Assembly: GCA_030522415.1 (NCBI GenBank)
Contig: CM060107.1
Coordinates: forward strand, 51,774,307-51,838,306
DNA: 64,000 nucleotides
Reading direction: 5' to 3'
DNA from: Channallabes apus
Taxonomy: Eukaryota; Chordata; Actinopteri; Siluriformes; Clariidae
The notes under the pieces are model-generated. The model was not told the origin of the DNA. It made no database searches and was given only the letters and a program-made list of their open reading frames with translations. Positions within the stretch are counted from its first letter, which is position 1, and every line of letters begins with the position of its first letter. The translations under genes were made by a program, and so were the position numbers. Below are positions 3,779-13,755 of the stretch, piece after piece.

Positions 3779-4252
3779 ATTCATTCATTCATTTTCTATA
3801 CCGCTTAATCCTGTTGTAAGTGCCATATCGCACTTGTTATGAATTTGTTGTTGTGTTTATTTTATTTTATTTTATTTGCTGTTATTTCATTTGTTCTACC
3901 TTGTTCTATTCAGTAGTAAAGCATTAAGCATTAAGTTTGTTACATAAGCCATAAGCTTTATATTTCTTAGTCATGCATCATAAGTTGACAATCGTAGGTT
4001 GGTCTGTGATTAGGGTTGTTCCGATTCCGATACTGGTATCGGAAATGCTGCCGATACCACAAAAAAATATGTGAAGTAGCAGGGCCACAGAATCAGGCAA
4101 CGGCCCATGAGCTATAAAACACAGCGGGGAGTGTAGCTCGGGGTCTGACTGTTGGGAAGCTGGACTTTGCGACGTGGTGGATTTTATGAGAGACAGTGGC
4201 ACAAGAGCGGGGCGATGTGATGCGCCCCAGAGACTTTAAAAAGGGGGGCGCC

Positions 4253-4622
4253 TGGAAATTAATTGAAGACTCAGGCTTTGGTTTCAGAAGATAACGGCCT
4301 TTATTTATCATGCAATACCGGCCGGGCGAGGCTGCCAGAGTCACACCGATCGCTAGCATTCCTCCCATTATATAGGCATCCTAGACAAAGGAATACATTC
4401 TATAGGCAATGATGTCATTCCAAACATCTGGACCTTGTTAGGCCTATCCGTTCTTGGGGGACTCAACGTATATATCAAATTCCTTGTGCAAGCATATTTT
4501 CCAGACATGTCTAGCTTCGCACGCATACCCCTGATTATTTCCAACTGGGATACCTTCTATTTCTTAAGAGTAATTAAAGTATAAGTAAAATCACATAAAA
4601 TCTAAACAAACTTTCTTCCACA
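4253..4622 (-). repeat. ERV 3' LTR
   Basis: 370 bp. On the minus strand it starts TGTGGAAGAAAG and ends AATTTCCA. It carries a TATATAA box (4368-4374) and an AATAAA signal (4300-4305) about 65 bases downstream, giving a U3-R-U5 order with a short R. Confidence 0.92.
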
Positions 4623-4624
4623 CA

Positions 4625-4634
4625 TCCCCCCTCT
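4625..4634 (-). other. ERV polypurine tract
   Basis: AGAGGGGGGA on the minus strand, three bases upstream of the 3' LTR. This is the expected place for the plus-strand primer of reverse transcription. Confidence 0.8.
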
Positions 4635-5197
4635 GGGGCTGACAAGTCCCATAATAAATGTTATCTGGAGTGCAAATCCATGTGCCAGCCCTTCTTACAC
4701 TAATCTAGTGATTCAATTAAATCACTGGACTTTTATCAATGACCGACCCATGGATTCGCCCTCTAGTGGAGAATCGGCCAAACCTCTCCTTCCACCCTTG
4801 ACTAGGAATAGGAGTAAAAGACTCGACCTCCATGACATCGTACGTCCCATTACTCAATGACATGACATGAACATGTACTTAATACAGTGATTTTCTAGGA
4901 TTACATCAATAGGATAATCATATAACCTACAATGGAACATACAATTACACAATAACATAACATGAATATGTAATTAATATAATGATTTTTCCTAGGATTA
5001 CACTAACCTAAATAACCTGGACATCTTATACAGTCTAAAATGAAGCATGCATAATACAATACAATGTTTAAAGCATATATAATGTTGAACAGCTGGGTCA
5101 TAATGTAAGAACTTCAACCCAGATACTTTGCGTATCGTAGAGGGTCGCCTTTGGGGAGAGGCTAGGCCAGTGCTTTCACCCAAGGCATGGCTCATCA
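4635..5197. other. ERV region between env and the PPT
   Basis: AT-rich, with no convincing reading frame. It holds the 3' untranslated part of the env message. Confidence 0.6.
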
Positions 5198-6916
5198 TTA
5201 ATCATCTTCTTCGTCCTCGTCCGAGGTGCCTGAATCTCCTCCTGATTCTTGGGAATCACAGTCTGAGCTGTAAATGTCTTTATTATAGGTTAGGGGTATT
5301 TTCTCATCTTGCCACTTTAATACCTCCATTTGTTGAACTGTAGCTTTTATGACCAAGGACTTTAATATAGGAAGTACACAACAAAACAACAATCCTCCTA
5401 TTAATATAGCAAATCCCAAGAACATACCAAATTTAGCAAACCATGCTCCCCAAGCTCCCAGTTTCAGATCTAGCCAGTCCCATATTTTATTATCCCTCCC
5501 AGCATTTTCAGTTACTTCCCGTCTCAGATTTTTAAGTTGATTCATGGCTTTAGTAAAAGTCCCATCAGGCGCTGTATTGTTAGGAATATAAGTACAACAT
5601 TGATCACCAAACAGAATGCACACACCTCCTTTCTCAGCCAATAACCAATTTAGTGCTTGTCTATTTTGCCAGGTCATTGTACTAGTAGCCACTAATTGCT
5701 CTCCTAATGCAGCCAAAGCATCTTCTGTGTAATTAATAAATCTCTGTTGATTATAGTAAATATAATTAATCCATTCAGCATTTTTGTTAGGTGTTATCCA
5801 TATAAAAATTGACTCAAATCCAGATTTTACCTCATCTCTGGCTTTAAATTCATTAGGTATACCTCTGGGTTGTCCTACTGAGTCTATATACACGTTGGGA
5901 TCAGGTTGGTAAGCCCTTTTATCATGCCTTCTGGTTTCATCCAATTGTATTATGTTTGTCTCCTGACGCAGTCTTACTCTAGTACAAATTCCTTTCCATC
6001 CTATCGGTAAGGAGGCCATTAGGCGCTCCTTCCCACAAAGCCAATAAAAATCTGCTACTACTATAGCTTGATCTTTAATTATTTCTATTGAAGGTGGTAT
6101 TATAGTCTGGTTTTCGCAGGATTTTAAGGTGATATGTGTTCCATTTTTTACTCCTTGGGCTAGGAGGCCTGGTGCTCTTAAAGGTACCACAGATTCCCAA
6201 GCAGTCTTTTTGTCTAAAAACCAGGTGGTGGTACAGATTCCAGTAAAGTTTCCTAAATCCAGCATCCCTTCTGGTTTATAAAAACACTCATATTCTTGTT
6301 TATGATCAATGGTGTACCATTTGGGAATTTCTACTTTTCCTGGTTGTACTTTAATGTTTTTATTCATATCCCAATGCCCACACCAATCACCCAAATGTGG
6401 TCTCTCAAAATAGCTGGTATACTTGGAGTTTCCTAAAAATGACAAACATTCAGCAGCGCAATATGGCCTAAATATATCAGTTAAATGACAAAAGTTTCGA
6501 TTGAAGTCAGCACATTTTTGATAGTCATGCGGATTTGGAACTACAGTTACTTTATTTAAGGGTGATTTGGAACATAATAGACAGTTATCCATACCCACCT
6601 CATTTGCTGTAAATGCTGCCCATAGGTACCACTCATTATGTCTGGCGGTGTCCCACAAAGAATCTAAATCATTATCTTTTACTGTACCATTACTCTTATT
6701 CTTAGTATGTCTACGTTGTTTCGATGGGTTAAATCTTTCAATTAAGTTTTGTACATTGGGGGTTATTGTTGTTATATCATTAGGCCTAGTCGATTGCTGT
6801 AAACTTAATTCTTGGGAAGTCTGATTGGAGCTGTGTACAGGTGAGCTGACCACGGCTTGGTGTAATACCTGAAAGATAATGATCATTAGGTCTGCTATCC
6901 ACTTTATTTTCCCCAT
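5198..6916 (-). CDS. env: ERV envelope glycoprotein, intact 572-aa ORF
   Basis: Retroviral Env precursor, complete from ATG at 6916 to a stop. Visible parts: hydrophobic leader (residues about 5-25); SU with a CLLC (CXXC) motif at 112-115 and many cysteines and N-glycosylation sites; a basic cluster RRHDKR at 329-334 as possible cleavage site; TM ectodomain with an immunosuppressive-type segment followed by CX6CC (C433, C440, C441), the hallmark of gamma-type Env with covalent SU-TM linkage; membrane span about 493-520; and an acidic tail ending EDEEDD. The start overlaps the end of the integrase frame (6786-6916) in another frame, as in simple retroviruses. There is no internal stop or frameshift. 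Given the near-identical LTRs, integrity may simply reflect youth and not host use. Confidence 0.93.
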   Translation of the reverse strand: MGKIKWIADLMIIIFQVLHQAVVSSPVHSSNQTSQELSLQQSTRPNDITTITPNVQNLIERFNPSKQRRHTKNKSNGTVKDNDLDSLWDTARHNEWYLWAAFTANEVGMDNCLLCSKSPLNKVTVVPNPHDYQKCADFNRNFCHLTDIFRPYCAAECLSFLGNSKYTSYFERPHLGDWCGHWDMNKNIKVQPGKVEIPKWYTIDHKQEYECFYKPEGMLDLGNFTGICTTTWFLDKKTAWESVVPLRAPGLLAQGVKNGTHITLKSCENQTIIPPSIEIIKDQAIVVADFYWLCGKERLMASLPIGWKGICTRVRLRQETNIIQLDETRRHDKRAYQPDPNVYIDSVGQPRGIPNEFKARDEVKSGFESIFIWITPNKNAEWINYIYYNQQRFINYTEDALAALGEQLVATSTMTWQNRQALNWLLAEKGGVCILFGDQCCTYIPNNTAPDGTFTKAMNQLKNLRREVTENAGRDNKIWDWLDLKLGAWGAWFAKFGMFLGFAILIGGLLFCCVLPILKSLVIKATVQQMEVLKWQDEKIPLTYNKDIYSSDCDSQESGGDSGTSDEDEEDD

Positions 6917-7290
6917 TTTTCTGCTTTATTTCCTCCACCCCTTTCACACAGATTTCAAGACCCTGTAGGTTTTCACTGTCGTTGGGTGGGTCCTCTTCTT
7001 CTGCACCTGTTCCCTTACTTACTTTAGGGACTCTTGTGCAATGGTTTAAATGATACCAGGTGGTTTTGCCTTCCACTTGGACTGCTGTAGGAGTGGCTGC
7101 TACAACATTGTAAGGACCCTCTCTCCTGGGCTCATGCCACTTTCTCCTGGGAGAAAGTGGCATGAAGTGGGATGGGACACGGAGCGTCTTTCTCTTCCTC
7201 CGTCTCCTTGTTCTTTTCCTGCACAAAGATTGCTTTATGTATGGCAGTTAGTTTCTTCATATATGATCTGAGTTCCAGTTGTAATTGTTT
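6786..7290 (-). pseudogene. pol: ERV pol 3' remnant: integrase C-terminal domain
   Basis: The C-terminal GPY/F-type integrase domain is recognisable on the minus strand: a GPYNVV motif, then PTAVQVEG and a W-x-H-x-N-H-C segment, which is the usual end of gamma-like integrases. It reads to a stop at 6786, overlapping env. Upstream integrase (zinc-binding HHCC and the DDE core) is absent. The frame of the preceding RT stub runs into a stop at 7132 and this domain lies in another frame, so a frameshift near 7133-7180 separates them. Confidence 0.8.
7133..7164. repeat. Perfect inverted repeat in pol remnant
   Basis: Two 15-base arms (CATGCCACTTTCTCC) around a 2-base loop. It sits where the RT-stub frame ends and the integrase frame has to be entered, so it probably marks a local rearrangement that caused the frameshift. 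Confidence 0.85.
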
Positions 7291-7545
7291 AACAAGACCT
7301 TCAATTGTGTTTTTTATTCCAGCTTCTGCCTCAGGTCGCAAAGGATATTGTCTTACTCTGGGCAGTTTTACATTTGGTTTAAGCTGTACATGAATTGGGC
7401 TGGCTGATTTAATTAGGCCTACATCTGTATCATGCCGTGACCATAATTCAGATGGGACTTGACTTTCCATTTGCCTATACAACTCATCTTCAGCCGTCTC
7501 AACTACCTCTGATGCTGATGCCATTTGTGTCTGTGACTTGCTGCT

Positions 7546-8037
7546 AACTACAACTTCCTGAGGAGTACCAATTAAACTATTACCACACAAGATCTTGATG
7601 TAGTTCTTATCTGCAGAATGAAAAATCAACGGGTTAATGGTTGACTCCCACTGGACTTCAGTAGCGTCCTTCATCATTGGTCCTAAGTCCTTTGAACTGA
7701 AGTTTTGTCCTACATACAATGTCACATGAGGAACAGAATCAGTTACATTAAACCACGTCTTTACAAAATCACACTCATCTACACTGATAGCTGCTCCTTG
7801 CCTACCTATGATGATGTGTTGTGTAATTAATTCAACCTCGTTCCCTTTTGTCTCTTCCTGCCATTTCCGTTCTAATTCAGTATCCTTAGATTTGTCATAC
7901 ATCATTGTACAGTGAAAAGCCGAACAGGGTAGCTGTGCTTCAGGAATCTGTGCTTTAATGAATTTTCCCCACTTATGAATTATTTGACTGACATCTTTTT
8001 CCAGCTGTCCTATCCAATACACATTTGCATGTGGCTC
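7546..8037 (-). other. Candidate 2H (CNPase/LigT-type) phosphodiesterase domain
   Basis: Lies between protease and RT. First motif FHCTMMYD (His codon 7912-7914), second PHVTLYVG (His codon 7726-7728), 62 residues apart. Members of the 2H superfamily (CNPase, LigT, AKAP7, coronavirus NS2) use two HxT/S motifs, usually about 80 residues apart, to cut 2',3'-cyclic or 2'-5' phosphodiesters. The segment between includes a GRQGAAISVDE stretch comparable in place to the central strands. The assignment rests on motif and context only; the shorter spacing is a caution. Confidence 0.55.
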
Positions 8038-8448
8038 AGACATTACCATTTGATTTTTAATACCTGTCAAGTCGACGTACACCCCTTCTGGAGAACACCA
8101 TATTTGGAGTCCTAATTTACATAATGCATCTCTTCCTAATAAATTAACCGGTGTCTGACTTGAGACTAATACAGATATAGTCACACTTTTATTGTTTGTT
8201 TGTAGACGGACTGGAGCGGTCATAGGGATCAACTGCTTTTTACCCAAGAATCCTACTGTCTTAGCAAATTTTCCAGACATGGGGAGATGAGAGTCATGAC
8301 TTAAATTTAAGCATGTATAAACCGCTCCTGTATCAACTAACATGGGTGTACTTTTACCGTCAACCTCAATATGTAACATGGGTTCTTGTTCTGCACTAGT
8401 TGTCAAAATAGGCAATTGGTTCTCCCCGGTAGGATTCTCTGGGCACCT

Positions 8449-8451
8449 CTA
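8449..8451 (-). promoter_or_regulatory. In-frame UAG between gag and pol (readthrough site)
   Basis: TAG on the minus strand separates the nucleocapsid frame from the protease frame with no frame change (8934 and 8415 differ by a multiple of 3). Gamma- and epsilonretroviruses make Gag-Pol by suppression of exactly such a stop. Any downstream pseudoknot was not verified. Confidence 0.75.
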
Positions 8452-8985
8452 ACACCCCTGACTCGGGGCCCACGGATTAATGGGTTCAACTCTATCTCGA
8501 GGAGGCTGCTGCCACCCGCCCACCGCCGCACCCCTTGGGTTCTGACGGCATGGATGTGAGAGGCAATTTGACCGGTTGTGTCCAGCTTGTCCACACCCCC
8601 AGCACACGCCTGGGGGGAAGTTCGACTGAGGATTTCTTTGTCCTCTAGGTTGTTGACTGGCTCTCCACTCCCTCTGGACTGGCCTTTGTGTGAAAACGTT
8701 AACGACAGGCGCAGGCATCTGGTTTGAGTTTGGAGAAACTGCAGCTGGTGACATCATCGCAGTGGATGCAGCCTGCTGGACTGTGGGTGTTGGATTACTT
8801 AGGGCCCTCACAAACAATTCCTCTGCTTCCTCTGTTCTTAGTGTAGCTTGGACCTTTTTCTTGTTCCTCTTTGTTAGTTCTTCAAGCTGTAATTGAGTCA
8901 ATTTCCTTTGCAACTCTTTTTCTTGGGCTTTCAACTTCTGCTCATTTTTCCTATACTGTTCAACAGCATGTGAGACGTGATCACA
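8449..8985 (-). pseudogene. gag: ERV gag 3' part: nucleocapsid with CCHC knuckle
   Basis: A lysine/glutamine-rich helical stretch (KAQEKELQRKL, then KRNKKK), followed by a proline/asparagine/arginine-rich part and one CCHC zinc knuckle, CWGCGQAGHNRSNC (CX2CX4HX4C), typical of nucleocapsid. It ends at the UAG. It is in a different frame from the capsid ORF. The two join near 8955-8985, where continuing residues (HAVEQYRKNEQK) are readable only after a one-base shift. This is a frameshift mutation and not a programmed site, because both halves belong to Gag. Confidence 0.85.
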
Positions 8986-10325
8986 TCTTCCAGTTTACTT
9001 TTCACTGGTTGAGGCATAGCATTTACTATGGTTTGTCTGAACAGCGTAGACAACAGTGCATCTCCCTCAGGATCACTTTCAGTCTCTTGCTTCCATTTCT
9101 TTAACTGCTTCTGAATGTACAGCGTTGGATTCTCTGTGTCTTCTAACTGTTCACCTTTTAATGCTTTTGGGTCAACCCTCGTGGGATACTCTGCACGCAA
9201 GGCATGCCACACAGACGGACGATAAGCATCAAAAACAGTTCCATCCATATGATATGTATCTACGGCCTCACTCAGGTCAGAAGAATGGAGGACTTCTTCC
9301 AGTTTTCCTACCCCCACAATCCTTGCCAGTAAAGCTTTAATGTCTCCCACCGACAAAAGTTTGCCAGATGTTTCTTCCTCTAAACATCGTATCCATTTAC
9401 TCGCACCTTCCAGGATGCTTGGCAAGCGGTTGACAAGCCCCTCGAGATCTTGCGTTGCCCATGGAAGGTATTGTCCCCGAGCACCTTTAATTAAAATTGG
9501 GAATTGTGGAGCTAGGTGTCTAAGTTTACCAGTGTTCCTTCCCTGTTTCCAACTGCCCATGTTAAATGACAGATCCTCCTCCTCCTCCTCTTCATCTTTT
9601 TCACTGCACAATGGTCTATGTCCAGTCCTTAATGTTGTACCTATCTGACTTCTTACTGGTGTTTTAACACTCCTGTCTATCTTCCCTCCACTCGCCTGCA
9701 TCTTTTCCTGTTCCTCTATCGTATCTTCCTTCCCATACACCCTTTTCACCCTCTGTAGATCTGCCCTTACTTCCTTGTAACAATCTAATGGTGTGCTTTC
9801 CTCTCTATCCTCTTTCCTACCTTGCCTCTTTCTCAACTTCACACCCGACTCTTCATAATCTTCTTCTAATTCTACAGGACCTTCCAATTTCATCTCACCA
9901 GAAACTCCCACCATGCCCTTAAGCATCGGAAAATGACCCTCAGTTTGTACATACGGAGGTGGTGTAACCACAGCTTCTATATCGCTACTACGGGCCTCGT
10001 TTCCTGACTTTTTAGACTTTCGTCTTACTTGCTTTTTCTGTCTTATCAATTCCTCCCCTTCTTGCTTAAACAAAGCTAGGACTTCCCTCTCCTGCTGTCT
10101 TTTTAACTCTCTCTGAACACGCTTTTTCTCTCTTGCTGCCGCTTTGTAATTTTTTATCAAGGTGTCCATCTCAGAACACAGTGCTAGATCAAATGTCCCC
10201 TCCTTTGGCCATTTTGTAATCATATCTTTAGTTCTCTTTTGCCATTTATTTGAGATCTTATTTATGAGTTCTGCACACAACGGATGCTTTAGCACTAAAG
10301 TCTCCACTGGAGAGGCTGCCATCAT
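8931..10325 (-). pseudogene. gag: ERV gag 5' part: matrix and capsid
   Basis: Starts at ATG 10325. The N-terminal part is helical matrix-like, followed by a long lysine/arginine/glutamate-rich coiled segment and a hydrophilic linker. A capsid-like region follows from about residue 275 (FPILIKG, then W-rich helices, YRPSVWHALRAEYPTR and a C-terminal helical domain up to VKSKLEDVI). It terminates early at 8931 because of the frameshift described for the nucleocapsid part. Only distant capsid resemblance is visible, but position, length and the following CCHC make gag secure. No PPxY late motif is obvious except PPPY near residue 122. Confidence 0.85.
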
Positions 10326-10937
10326 GCTGTAGCCTATGTCACCACTTAGATATTTTCTTATTTATTTATTTATTTATTTATTTTATGCCTGTGTACTTAC
10401 TTAATGGCTAAATTTACTTACAACAATATACACTCTTTTAGAATAACAGAAGTATCCACCTCCACTTACCAAGGCTCATCAATGATAGTCACTCCTTAAT
10501 CTACACCACTTCACTATTTTCAAATTAACATTTGCCAAAAAGCACAGTATTTTTATTACACAGTGAACACTTTCATCAATTACCGATTAATACCATTTAT
10601 AGAATCCAACCACATACACCACTCGACACTATTTATTTATTTCTTTATTCATAGGCATAGCATTCAGACTTCATCCCAATTTTCCTAGAAAATTGGGCTT
10701 ATTCTCTTCATACTTGTCCCCCTTGCTAATGAGGGCTCATTTCATCCACTCACACATGTCCCTTTATTGATTATTATTTATGTATTTAATTATTAGGCTA
10801 GCTATTACTTAAATAGGGCTCATTCAGACACACGTCTCTGGTCTAGCAGCAAGCTGCCCCCCCTCTGAGGGTTGCACACACAATTCCCTCGGGAGGTCCA
10901 GCCTGCTCACAGCACACAGAGCTTATCTCATTCAACC

Positions 10938-11000
<63 letters not shown>

Positions 11001-11870
11001 TAGGCGAACACAGAGCTCTCACACATTCAGACAGAAACAGATAGACACAAAATCACTTAGACACAAACAATTGCAATTGCGTTCAACTTAAATCAACTTA
11101 ATGGCACAAATCGTGCTCCCCATACGAAGAGATATTAATTACCCCTGTCACTCATATCAATAAAACATAAGGGGTGATTTCTTATGATGTACAGTTGTAC
11201 ATTCCACATACGAAGAGATATCAATTAAAAAACCACCAACCTCATACCATATAACATTTACGGTGGCTACAAAAATTGCTTATGACATACAACAGTACGT
11301 TCCTCATACAATGGGTATTTTTTTTTTATTAATTGCTGGGTAACCTTACACAAGCAATATAACTAATTAAGCGCAATTCCTTATTAACTTCTTGCGTAAC
11401 TAATTAAGCGCAATTCCTTATTAACTCTGCACTACTCATGCCATCCAATCAAGGCCCACTTGACAATGAGTACAAATTAATACCGAGATTATCTACTTTT
11501 TTCCTGTCCTGTTATCTATCAAAGCCCACTTAACAAAACAAATAGACACTCAAATGCGCTTCCTCATACCGTCTGTTACTGTTGCCATCAATCAATGCCC
11601 ACTTGACAACACCCAGACCAATGCAATTCTTATTTTATCAATTTACTATCAGTACAACAGTTAGTAAGTTTGATGCATGCATTCTTTTCTGAAAACAAAG
11701 CCCATTTTAAATTACTTGAGTTGGAGAGGTCTTTATCAGTGTCCTTACCACCATGCGGTTTCCCAGCAAACAACACAAACTAAGTATATAAGCAAAAGTT
11801 GCTTACCTTTTTTAGGTGGCCACCTGTTTGTGCTGCTCGCCCAGGAAGCCACACCTTTGCCCCTTCTCCA
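10326..11870. other. ERV 5' leader, non-coding
   Basis: About 1.5 kb between PBS and gag, unusually long. It contains a (TTTA)n run near 10360, a (CT)n/(CA)n microsatellite at 10944-11000, a 37-bp-period tandem pair (11360 and 11397) and a recurring 20-base motif (see findings). No ORF of note. Confidence 0.6.
10944..11000. repeat. (CT)n-(CA)n microsatellite in ERV leader
   Basis: About 21 CT units followed by CA units. Confidence 0.95.
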
Positions 11871-11888
11871 CCCTTGCTCGCAGCGCCA
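11871..11888 (-). other. ERV primer-binding site, probably tRNA-Ser type
   Basis: On the minus strand TGGCGCTGCGAGCAAGGG begins 8 bases after the 5' LTR. It matches the 3' end of a vertebrate serine tRNA (CGA-type) better than any other tRNA I can recall, with about 14 of 18 matching. This is from memory, so the tRNA identity is tentative. Confidence 0.55.
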
Positions 11889-11896
11889 AGATGTCG

Positions 11897-12266
11897 TGGA
11901 AATTAATTGAAGACTCAGGCTTTGGTTTCAGAAGATAACGGCCTTTATTTATCATGCAATACCGGCCGGGCGAGGCTGCCAGAGTCACACCGATCGCTAG
12001 CATTCCCCCCATTATATAGGCATCCTAGACAAAGGAATACATTCTATAGGCAATGATGTCATTCCAAACATCTGGACCTTGTTAGGCCTATCCGTTCTTG
12101 GGGGACTCAACGTATATATCAAATTCCTTGTGCAAGCATATTTTCCAGACATGTCTAGCTTCGCACGCATACCCCTGATTATTTCCAACTGGGATACCTT
12201 CTATTTCTTAAGAGTAATTAAAGTATAAGTAAAATCACATAAAATCTAAACAAACTTTCTTCCACA
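11897..12266 (-). repeat. ERV 5' LTR
   Basis: 370 bp, colinear with the 3' LTR and different at one base (12007 C, versus 4363 T). TATATAA box at 12012-12018 on the minus strand, the presumed proviral promoter. Confidence 0.92.
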
Positions 12267-12532
12267 CGCCTTAGATCTCCGCGAGAGGAGCGCGTGAACG
12301 AGCCGCGAGCTCCCGCAGCACCTTCACTTCCGCGTCGAGCCTGCCTTCGCATCCCTGCCGCCGAAGGTGAAAAGACCGCATAGACCGCATTTAACCCTTT
12401 CCTTACCCATTTTTCTAAATAAATTACCCTTTTTCCTGTAAGACCTCGCCTCGTGTCCGTGTTTCATGGTGTCGCCCGTGCACTTAGGGTCGAACCCGTT
12501 ACACAGGGCTAGTAGTATTTTACTTAAAAAAG

Positions 12533-12536
<4 letters not shown>

Positions 12537-12584
<48 letters not shown>

Positions 12585-12599
12585 TTTTATATTATGTAT

Positions 12600-12662
<63 letters not shown>

Positions 12663-12700
12663 TATATGTATATATACACATACATAATATACACACACAC
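12537..12700. repeat. (TA)n palindromic tracts in hAT MITE
   Basis: Two long TA runs separated by short T-rich and GTATG spacers, able to fold back. The same structure is at 61967-62112 with different run lengths. Confidence 0.95.
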
Positions 12701-13597
12701 ACTGTACAGATACACACCCAGGTATCGGATCGGTACTCGGTATCGGCCGATACCCTGAGCCCAAGTATCGGAATCGGTATCGGGAAAAAATGGTATCGGA
12801 ACATCTCTATCTGTGATGTCATTCTACTATTACATGCATTTGTGTGACTGTCATATGTTAGAGAGCAGTCTAGATGCGGAAGGCTAAGGAAACACAAGCT
12901 TTTGACCGTAAGCCCGGTAAGCTAAGAATGTGAAATACAGCAACTAGGTTGTTGTAACCGTAAGCTAACGTAAGTGGATATATACAGCAAGAGTGTTGTT
13001 ATATTCGTGAGCTAAGACTGTAATTTACAAGATACAGCAAACAGGTTGTTGTAAAAGTCAGAGATTTGCAAGATGCAGCAACTGGTGTCTGTAATCACAG
13101 TGGATTTACTCAAGACGACTGTATGAAGTGTTGATTCTTTGATGCTGACAAAATAAACTACAAGAGACAAAGAGATTGGACTTCTGTCGTGTGAGTGAAA
13201 CTTTAAACCAAAGCTACGCGTCAAAACTGGTGAAATAATATGACCGCATCTACACCTGTGTTCAGGGTCGCGGGGGACCTGGAGCCTATCCCAGGAGACT
13301 TCGGGCACTAGGCGGGGTACACCCTGGACAGGGTGCCAATGCATCGCAGGGCACACACACATACACACACTCATACACCCAATCACACACTACGGGCAAT
13401 TTAGGAACGCCAATTAGCCTAACCTGCATATCTTTGGACTGTGGGAGGAAACCGGAGTACCCGGAGGAAACCCACCAAGCACGGGGAGAACATGCAAACT
13501 CCATGCACACAGAGACGGGAATCGAGCCTGGCCGGGGAATCGAACCCAGACCCTGGAGGTGCAAGGCGACAGTGCTAACCACTACACAACCGCGCCG

Positions 13598-13599
<2 letters not shown>

Positions 13600-13637
<38 letters not shown>

Positions 13638-13755
13638 TTCTTAAAACATCGTGTTCACCCATGCACTGAAAAAAAGAACTTGTAAGATTTACTTGATAAA
13701 ATCCTCATAACAATTTGGACACAGATTTTAAGTAAATTTTATTGCTCCAATATAA
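13600..13755. other. End of copy 1/copy 3 homology
   Basis: After the SINE head (13599) a (TA)n run replaces the CGATATCAGGA flank found in copy 3, so the duplication breakpoint or a later rearrangement lies here. From about 13664, CACTGAAAAAAAG starts AT-rich sequence of possible transposon origin. Confidence 0.55.

What the first reader, a model, noticed from the sequence alone, without database searches (positions are those of the whole stretch)
7546..8037. Possible 2H/CNPase-type phosphodiesterase inside a retroviral pol, between protease and RT
The gag-pol readthrough frame carries about 160 residues between retropepsin and the RT N-terminus that belong to neither. Two H-x-T motifs (HCT and HVT, 62 residues apart) each sit in a hydrophobic strand-like context, the signature of 2H phosphodiesterases. 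Established: CNPase, LigT and AKAP7 are 2H enzymes, and coronavirus NS2 and rotavirus VP3 use such domains to destroy 2-5A and block RNase L. Retroviruses are known to capture dUTPase in pol, but I know of no described 2H domain there. Inference: a fish retrovirus lineage captured a host CNPase-like domain, perhaps against the OAS/RNase L-type response or for RNA processing.
Basis: partly seen in the sequence, partly recalled or inferred. Interest (0 to 1): 0.87.

Follow-up and report, generated by a model that had tools for sequence, protein, structure and literature searches.

The report
CNPase-like enzyme inside fish retrovirus pol
A recently inserted, damaged fish retrovirus carries, between its protease and reverse transcriptase, a conserved domain that looks like a two-histidine (CNPase-like) phosphodiesterase, a kind earlier authors had already reported in fish retroviruses but whose job there appears untested.

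The parts
4253..12266 (-). Provirus, young and defective, flanked by a 4-bp target-site duplication CGCC (4249-4252 and 12267-12270)
   Evidence: LTR pair and flanks read directly
11897..12266 (-). 5' LTR (370 bp)
   Evidence: 1 mismatch in 370 to the other LTR
4253..4622 (-). 3' LTR (370 bp)
8931..10361 (-). Presumed gag ORF, first part (continues in another frame)
   Evidence: ORF and position only; no significant Pfam match
8449..8994 (-). Presumed gag ORF, last part, ending in an in-frame TAG (8449-8451) directly before pol
   Evidence: A pattern scan of 13 loci found the site in 10: TAG in 7 family-1 loci (L002, the window copy, among them), TGA in 3 family-2 loci; no match in L001, L008, L072
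7135..8448 (-). Remaining pol frame, 438 aa: protease, 2H domain, RT N-terminus, then deletion
8101..8391 (-). Retropepsin
   Evidence: Pfam RVP E 7.7e-13
7573..8043 (-). 2H, CNPase-like phosphodiesterase domain (the finding)
   Evidence: Foldseek, VIA, hhalign, conservation
7906..7914 (-). First H-x-T (HCT)
   Evidence: aligned with HCT of the CNPase profile
7897..7899 (-). Invariant Tyr at H+5, the place of CNPase Phe235
   Evidence: 12 of 12 rows Tyr
7720..7728 (-). Second H-x-T (HVT)
   Evidence: aligned with HVT of the CNPase profile
7288..7446 (-). RT N-terminal remnant
   Evidence: The same residues run on into RT in relatives
7287..7288 (-). Deletion junction: RT N-terminus joined to the integrase C-terminal part
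   Evidence: By comparison with pol of P0006
6789..7247 (-). Integrase C-terminal remnant in another frame
   Evidence: Pfam MLVIN_C E 1.1e-7
5201..6925 (-). env, open 575-aa frame
   Evidence: Pfam TLV_coat E 9.5e-7

Best explanation
The insert is a 2H-superfamily phosphodiesterase domain, nearest to CNPase and the cyclic phosphodiesterase of fungal tRNA ligase, built into pol of epsilon-like fish retroviruses between protease and reverse transcriptase. Shown: place, fold match of models, both histidine motifs in register with CNPase, recurrence in several fish, purifying selection. Inferred: it is made by reading through the gag stop codon, so it enters particles in small amounts with protease, RT and integrase. 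There it opens 2',3'-cyclic phosphates on RNA ends to 2'-phosphates, either tidying nicked genomic or primer RNA or changing RNA ends that host sensors see. The window copy carries the domain intact, but its pol is crippled by a deletion.
Against: No sequence library names it. Both models are of low mean confidence (pLDDT 52.9 and 53.4), and the first motif lies in a stretch under 50 in both; in the window model the second does too. No Foldseek PDB match reaches E 0.001, and TM-scores are 0.46 at best. hhalign probability is 7.8%, 4.3% with the host sequence alone, where only the first motif is aligned. Thr of the second motif is Ala in 3 of 9 outside proteins and in 2 of 37 family-1 pieces. 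CNPase Arg307 has no counterpart. In family 1 the domain is less constrained (dN/dS 0.50 and 0.32) than protease (0.14) or RT (0.23). No activity or substrate was tested.
Confidence: 0.78

Rival explanations
1. The 2H domain cleaves 2-5A and blocks an OAS/RNase L-type response, as coronavirus NS2 and rotavirus VP3 do.
Confidence: 0.12
2. A 2H fold kept as a binding module, no longer catalytic (RNA binding, or a decoy of the host CNPase).
For: Second-motif Thr is Ser or Ala in some lineages; Arg307 not kept.
Against: Both histidines and the first Thr are invariant in 12 rows. In the 57 counted copies the second histidine is lost in 5, all with stop codons, and the first in none.
Confidence: 0.15
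3. Not a separate domain: an extended RT N-terminus or linker with two chance H-x-T motifs.
For: No sequence-family match; low model confidence.
Against: Models of two proteins both pick CNPase out of 350,542 chains; column shuffles do not reach the profile score; histidines conserved at 33% identity.
Confidence: 0.03

Closest known systems
2H domains of fish retroviruses and walleye dermal sarcoma virus (Mazumder 2002, as cited in PMC9503650)
   Same: 2H domain in fish retroviruses. In one search WEHV-1 and WDSV proteins are two of the three viral structures with E <= 0.001
   Different: I saw only a review passage, not the 2002 paper, so the place inside those viruses is not compared. The library labels both proteins 'Envelope polyprotein', which I could not resolve
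CNPase ORF in epsilon-like teleost ERVs (Basta 2009, as cited in PMC4977317)
   Same: Fish epsilon-like ERVs with a CNPase-related sequence
   Different: Called an additional ORF in the review passage; here it is fused in pol between protease and RT. Paper not held
Vertebrate CNPase / goldfish RICH catalytic domain
   Different: 7-12% identity in the structural alignments; no Pfam CNPase match; Arg307 missing; the kinase-like domain beside CNPase (recalled) is not there, as protease precedes directly
Fungal RNA kinase / tRNA ligase CPDase (6u05)
   Different: Part of a tRNA repair enzyme
Coronavirus ns2 2',5'-PDE, phage Acb1
   Different: Much weaker structural match than CNPase

Membership tests
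2H phosphoesterase superfamily | Two H-x-[ST] motifs, each at a strand | tested here: met
   HCT and HVT in the window copy; both histidines and the first Thr invariant in 12 rows, third place of the second motif T/S in 10 of 12 and A in 2 of 12; strands E56-60 and E118-122 in the window model, there of low confidence
2H phosphoesterase superfamily | 2H fold | tested here: met
2H phosphoesterase superfamily | Phosphodiesterase activity depending on both histidines | not testable with these tools
   No assay
CNPase family (Pfam PF05881) | Match to the family profile over its cut-off | tested here: not met
   No match for either family; in this genome PF05881 finds only the host gene on C18
CNPase family (Pfam PF05881) | CNPase is the nearest solved structure | tested here: met
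CNPase family (Pfam PF05881) | Active-site neighbours: aromatic at 235, Arg at 307 | tested here: inconclusive
   Tyr at the place of Phe235 in 12 of 12; Val/Ala at the place of Arg307. Their role in CNPase is recalled; the PDB titles show only that they were mutated
Viral 2',5'-PDE that antagonises RNase L | Cleavage of 2-5A | not testable with these tools
Epsilon-like (class I) fish ERV | RVP, RT, MLV-type integrase C-terminus, TLV-type env, stop codon between gag and pol | tested here: met
   RT domain seen in relatives only. No RT tree was built, so the genus placement is inferred

The most novel reading that the evidence does not exclude
The epsilonretrovirus lineage has a further pol enzyme: an old, catalytically constrained 2H phosphodiesterase packaged in particles, which processes 2',3'-cyclic-phosphate RNA ends during infection (primer, genome or host RNA). 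It would be a retroviral enzyme of RNA-end repair, of which I know no other.
Probability: 0.3. Interest if true: 0.72.

Novelty: new member of a known kind. Interest (0 to 1): 0.4.

Why it matters
Retroviral pol is usually protease, RT, RNase H and integrase, sometimes with dUTPase (recalled). A conserved CNPase-like domain in the middle of pol of fish retroviruses implies an RNA-end chemistry in the retroviral cycle. It has had sequence notice in print, but none of my ten listed paper searches showed biochemistry on it. Open frames in this genome make the isolated domain easy to assay.

Tried and rejected
Led nowhere: Pfam, PHROGs, NCBIfam and PDB sequence searches of the insert; the weak WRKY (E 0.0093), neuropilin, maf and phage RNA ligase (E 0.15; E 5) hits are taken as chance. 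Viral contigs: 3 scans, no relative. A protein search with family 2 found none of 294 candidates at E <= 1. hhalign in global mode gave no useful alignment. OAS1_C found nothing, and the tool warned that nothing rang anywhere, so it is no proof of absence. PF13563, PF10469, PF06479 and PF00077 in this genome did not complete, so a count of pol copies without the domain is missing. Rejected: dUTPase or G-patch (no Pfam match); plain RT linker.

Dropped rows: L060 (a 2-base filler region that I asked for by mistake), L009, L010 and L011 were left out of the motif counts (L009 is the same copy as L029; L010 is broken, L011 open). L001-L008 were not counted apart (L002 is the window copy; L003 and L007 are the copies of L012 and L013, which were counted). 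Of the matches the counts hold 36 and 19 pieces beyond the query copies.

Full report
What is there. The window lies in a genome of 1.16 Gb, taken to be a fish from its relatives and its RICH-like CNPase gene. On the minus strand, 4253-12266 is a provirus: 370-bp LTRs with one mismatch and a 4-bp duplication CGCC, so the insertion is young. The presumed gag is in two frames (8931-10361, 8449-8994). An in-frame TAG at 8449-8451 separates it from pol. Pol opens with a retropepsin, then the insert, then an RT N-terminus that jumps, near 7287/7288, into the C-terminal part of integrase; most of RT, RNase H and integrase is missing. Env is open (575 aa, TLV_coat). So this copy has a whole 2H domain in a broken pol.

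Is the motif pair real? HCT is at residue 179 and HVT at 241 of the frame, 62 apart. One sequence with two H-x-T could be chance, so I looked at relatives. The own-genome search scored 150 of 731 candidates and listed 150 matches, whole and partial, three of them of a second family; by my count of the listing 22 copies have a 1439-aa open pol frame. A search with that second family (33% identical to the window piece) scored 150 of 596 candidates and gave 151 matches, with 79% and 66% subfamilies and many frames of 1559-1597 aa. Protein searches added nine relatives: P0002-P0004 from 99 candidates and P0006-P0011 from 249, among them Sinocyclocheilus grahami and Esox lucius. A third search, with family 2, found none of 294 candidates at E <= 1.

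Motif counts. Family 1: HCT in 35 of 37 pieces (others HYT, HCR); second motif HVT in 30 of 37, HVA in 2, and the second histidine lost in 5, all five in copies with stop codons. Family 2: HCT in 20 of 20, HIS in 19 and HIT in 1. In the nine proteins, HCT is in 8 (P0004 has PCT), the second histidine in 9, and the Thr after it in 6; P0002-P0004 have Ala. In the 12-row alignment 23 of 186 columns are invariant and include H55, C56, T57, Tyr60 and H117. The rows were my choice and leave out broken copies and P0004.

Profile test. The fish's own CNPase/RICH gene is at C18:27014709-27016425. hhalign of the 12-row profile with the host sequence alone aligns only the first motif (E 0.0095, probability 4.3%). 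With a profile of host, goldfish and mouse sequences it aligns HCT with HCT and SVPHVTL with SRAHVTL, E 0.0044, probability 7.8%. None of 300 column shuffles reached the score 25.4 (highest 24.5, mean 13.0); reversed profiles gave 10.7 and 11.0. PDB titles show that CNPase residues H230, T232, H309, T311, F235 and R307 were mutated. The insert keeps the places of H230, T232 and H309, has T/S/A for T311, Tyr for F235 and Val or Ala for R307.

Selection. Nei-Gojobori dN/dS for the domain is 0.137 between two open family-2 subfamily copies, against 0.084 for protease and 0.043 for RT (dS 0.46 to 1.16, so RT is near saturation). In two family-1 pairs it is 0.50 and 0.32 on 23 and 26 changes, against 0.14 for protease and 0.23 for RT; the second pair's RT stretch has an odd dS of 0.38 and may be misaligned. 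So the domain is constrained, but less than the core enzymes. These are three single pairs, without a significance test.

Other viruses. In the viral structure library only three of 79 matches reach E <= 0.001: Q2VF30 (unnamed, 24% identity), Q9WHI8 (walleye epidermal hyperplasia virus 1) and A4GTG3 (walleye dermal sarcoma virus). The last two are labelled envelope polyprotein there, which I cannot reconcile with a pol domain from here; the query model also holds the end of the protease, in a low-confidence stretch.

What is known. [quoted passage not shown] PMC4977317 (passages) says some ray-finned-fish ERVs have additional ORFs for a CNPase or macro domain, citing Basta 2009. Neither cited paper is held. 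Ten searches showed no functional study of it in their listings; that covers only the open library and the rows shown. Term look-ups found no 'CNPase' in PMC8672886, PMC7599744 or PMC6001957; PMC10499221 cites Basta in its reference list.

Verdict. The domain is 2H and CNPase-like, though not a member of Pfam CNPase. It is not new in kind. The most likely chemistry, by nearest structure, is opening of 2',3'-cyclic phosphates; its role for the virus is inferred, and the anti-2-5A idea is possible but second.

Noticed in passing
window 8449-8451; L009 235-237: The stop before pol is TAG in the 7 family-1 loci and TGA in the 3 family-2 loci where a pattern scan of 13 loci found the site.
   Followed up: partly
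G000:C6:1350555-1351118: One family-2 match lies in a 2195-aa open frame, much longer than the 1559-1597 of its kin; not examined.
   Followed up: no
P0008, P0009: Public predicted proteins join the RT N-terminal part to env, an internal loss of pol reminiscent of the window copy.
   Followed up: no
P0002-P0004; L018: Second-motif Thr is Ala in the closest outside relatives and in one open copy here: perhaps a lineage with altered activity.
   Followed up: partly
window 12519-12714 and 13588-13665: AT-rich microsatellites just outside the 5' LTR.
   Followed up: no
BFVD Q9WHI8 and A4GTG3: Both walleye virus hits are labelled envelope polyprotein although the query is a pol domain.
   Followed up: no
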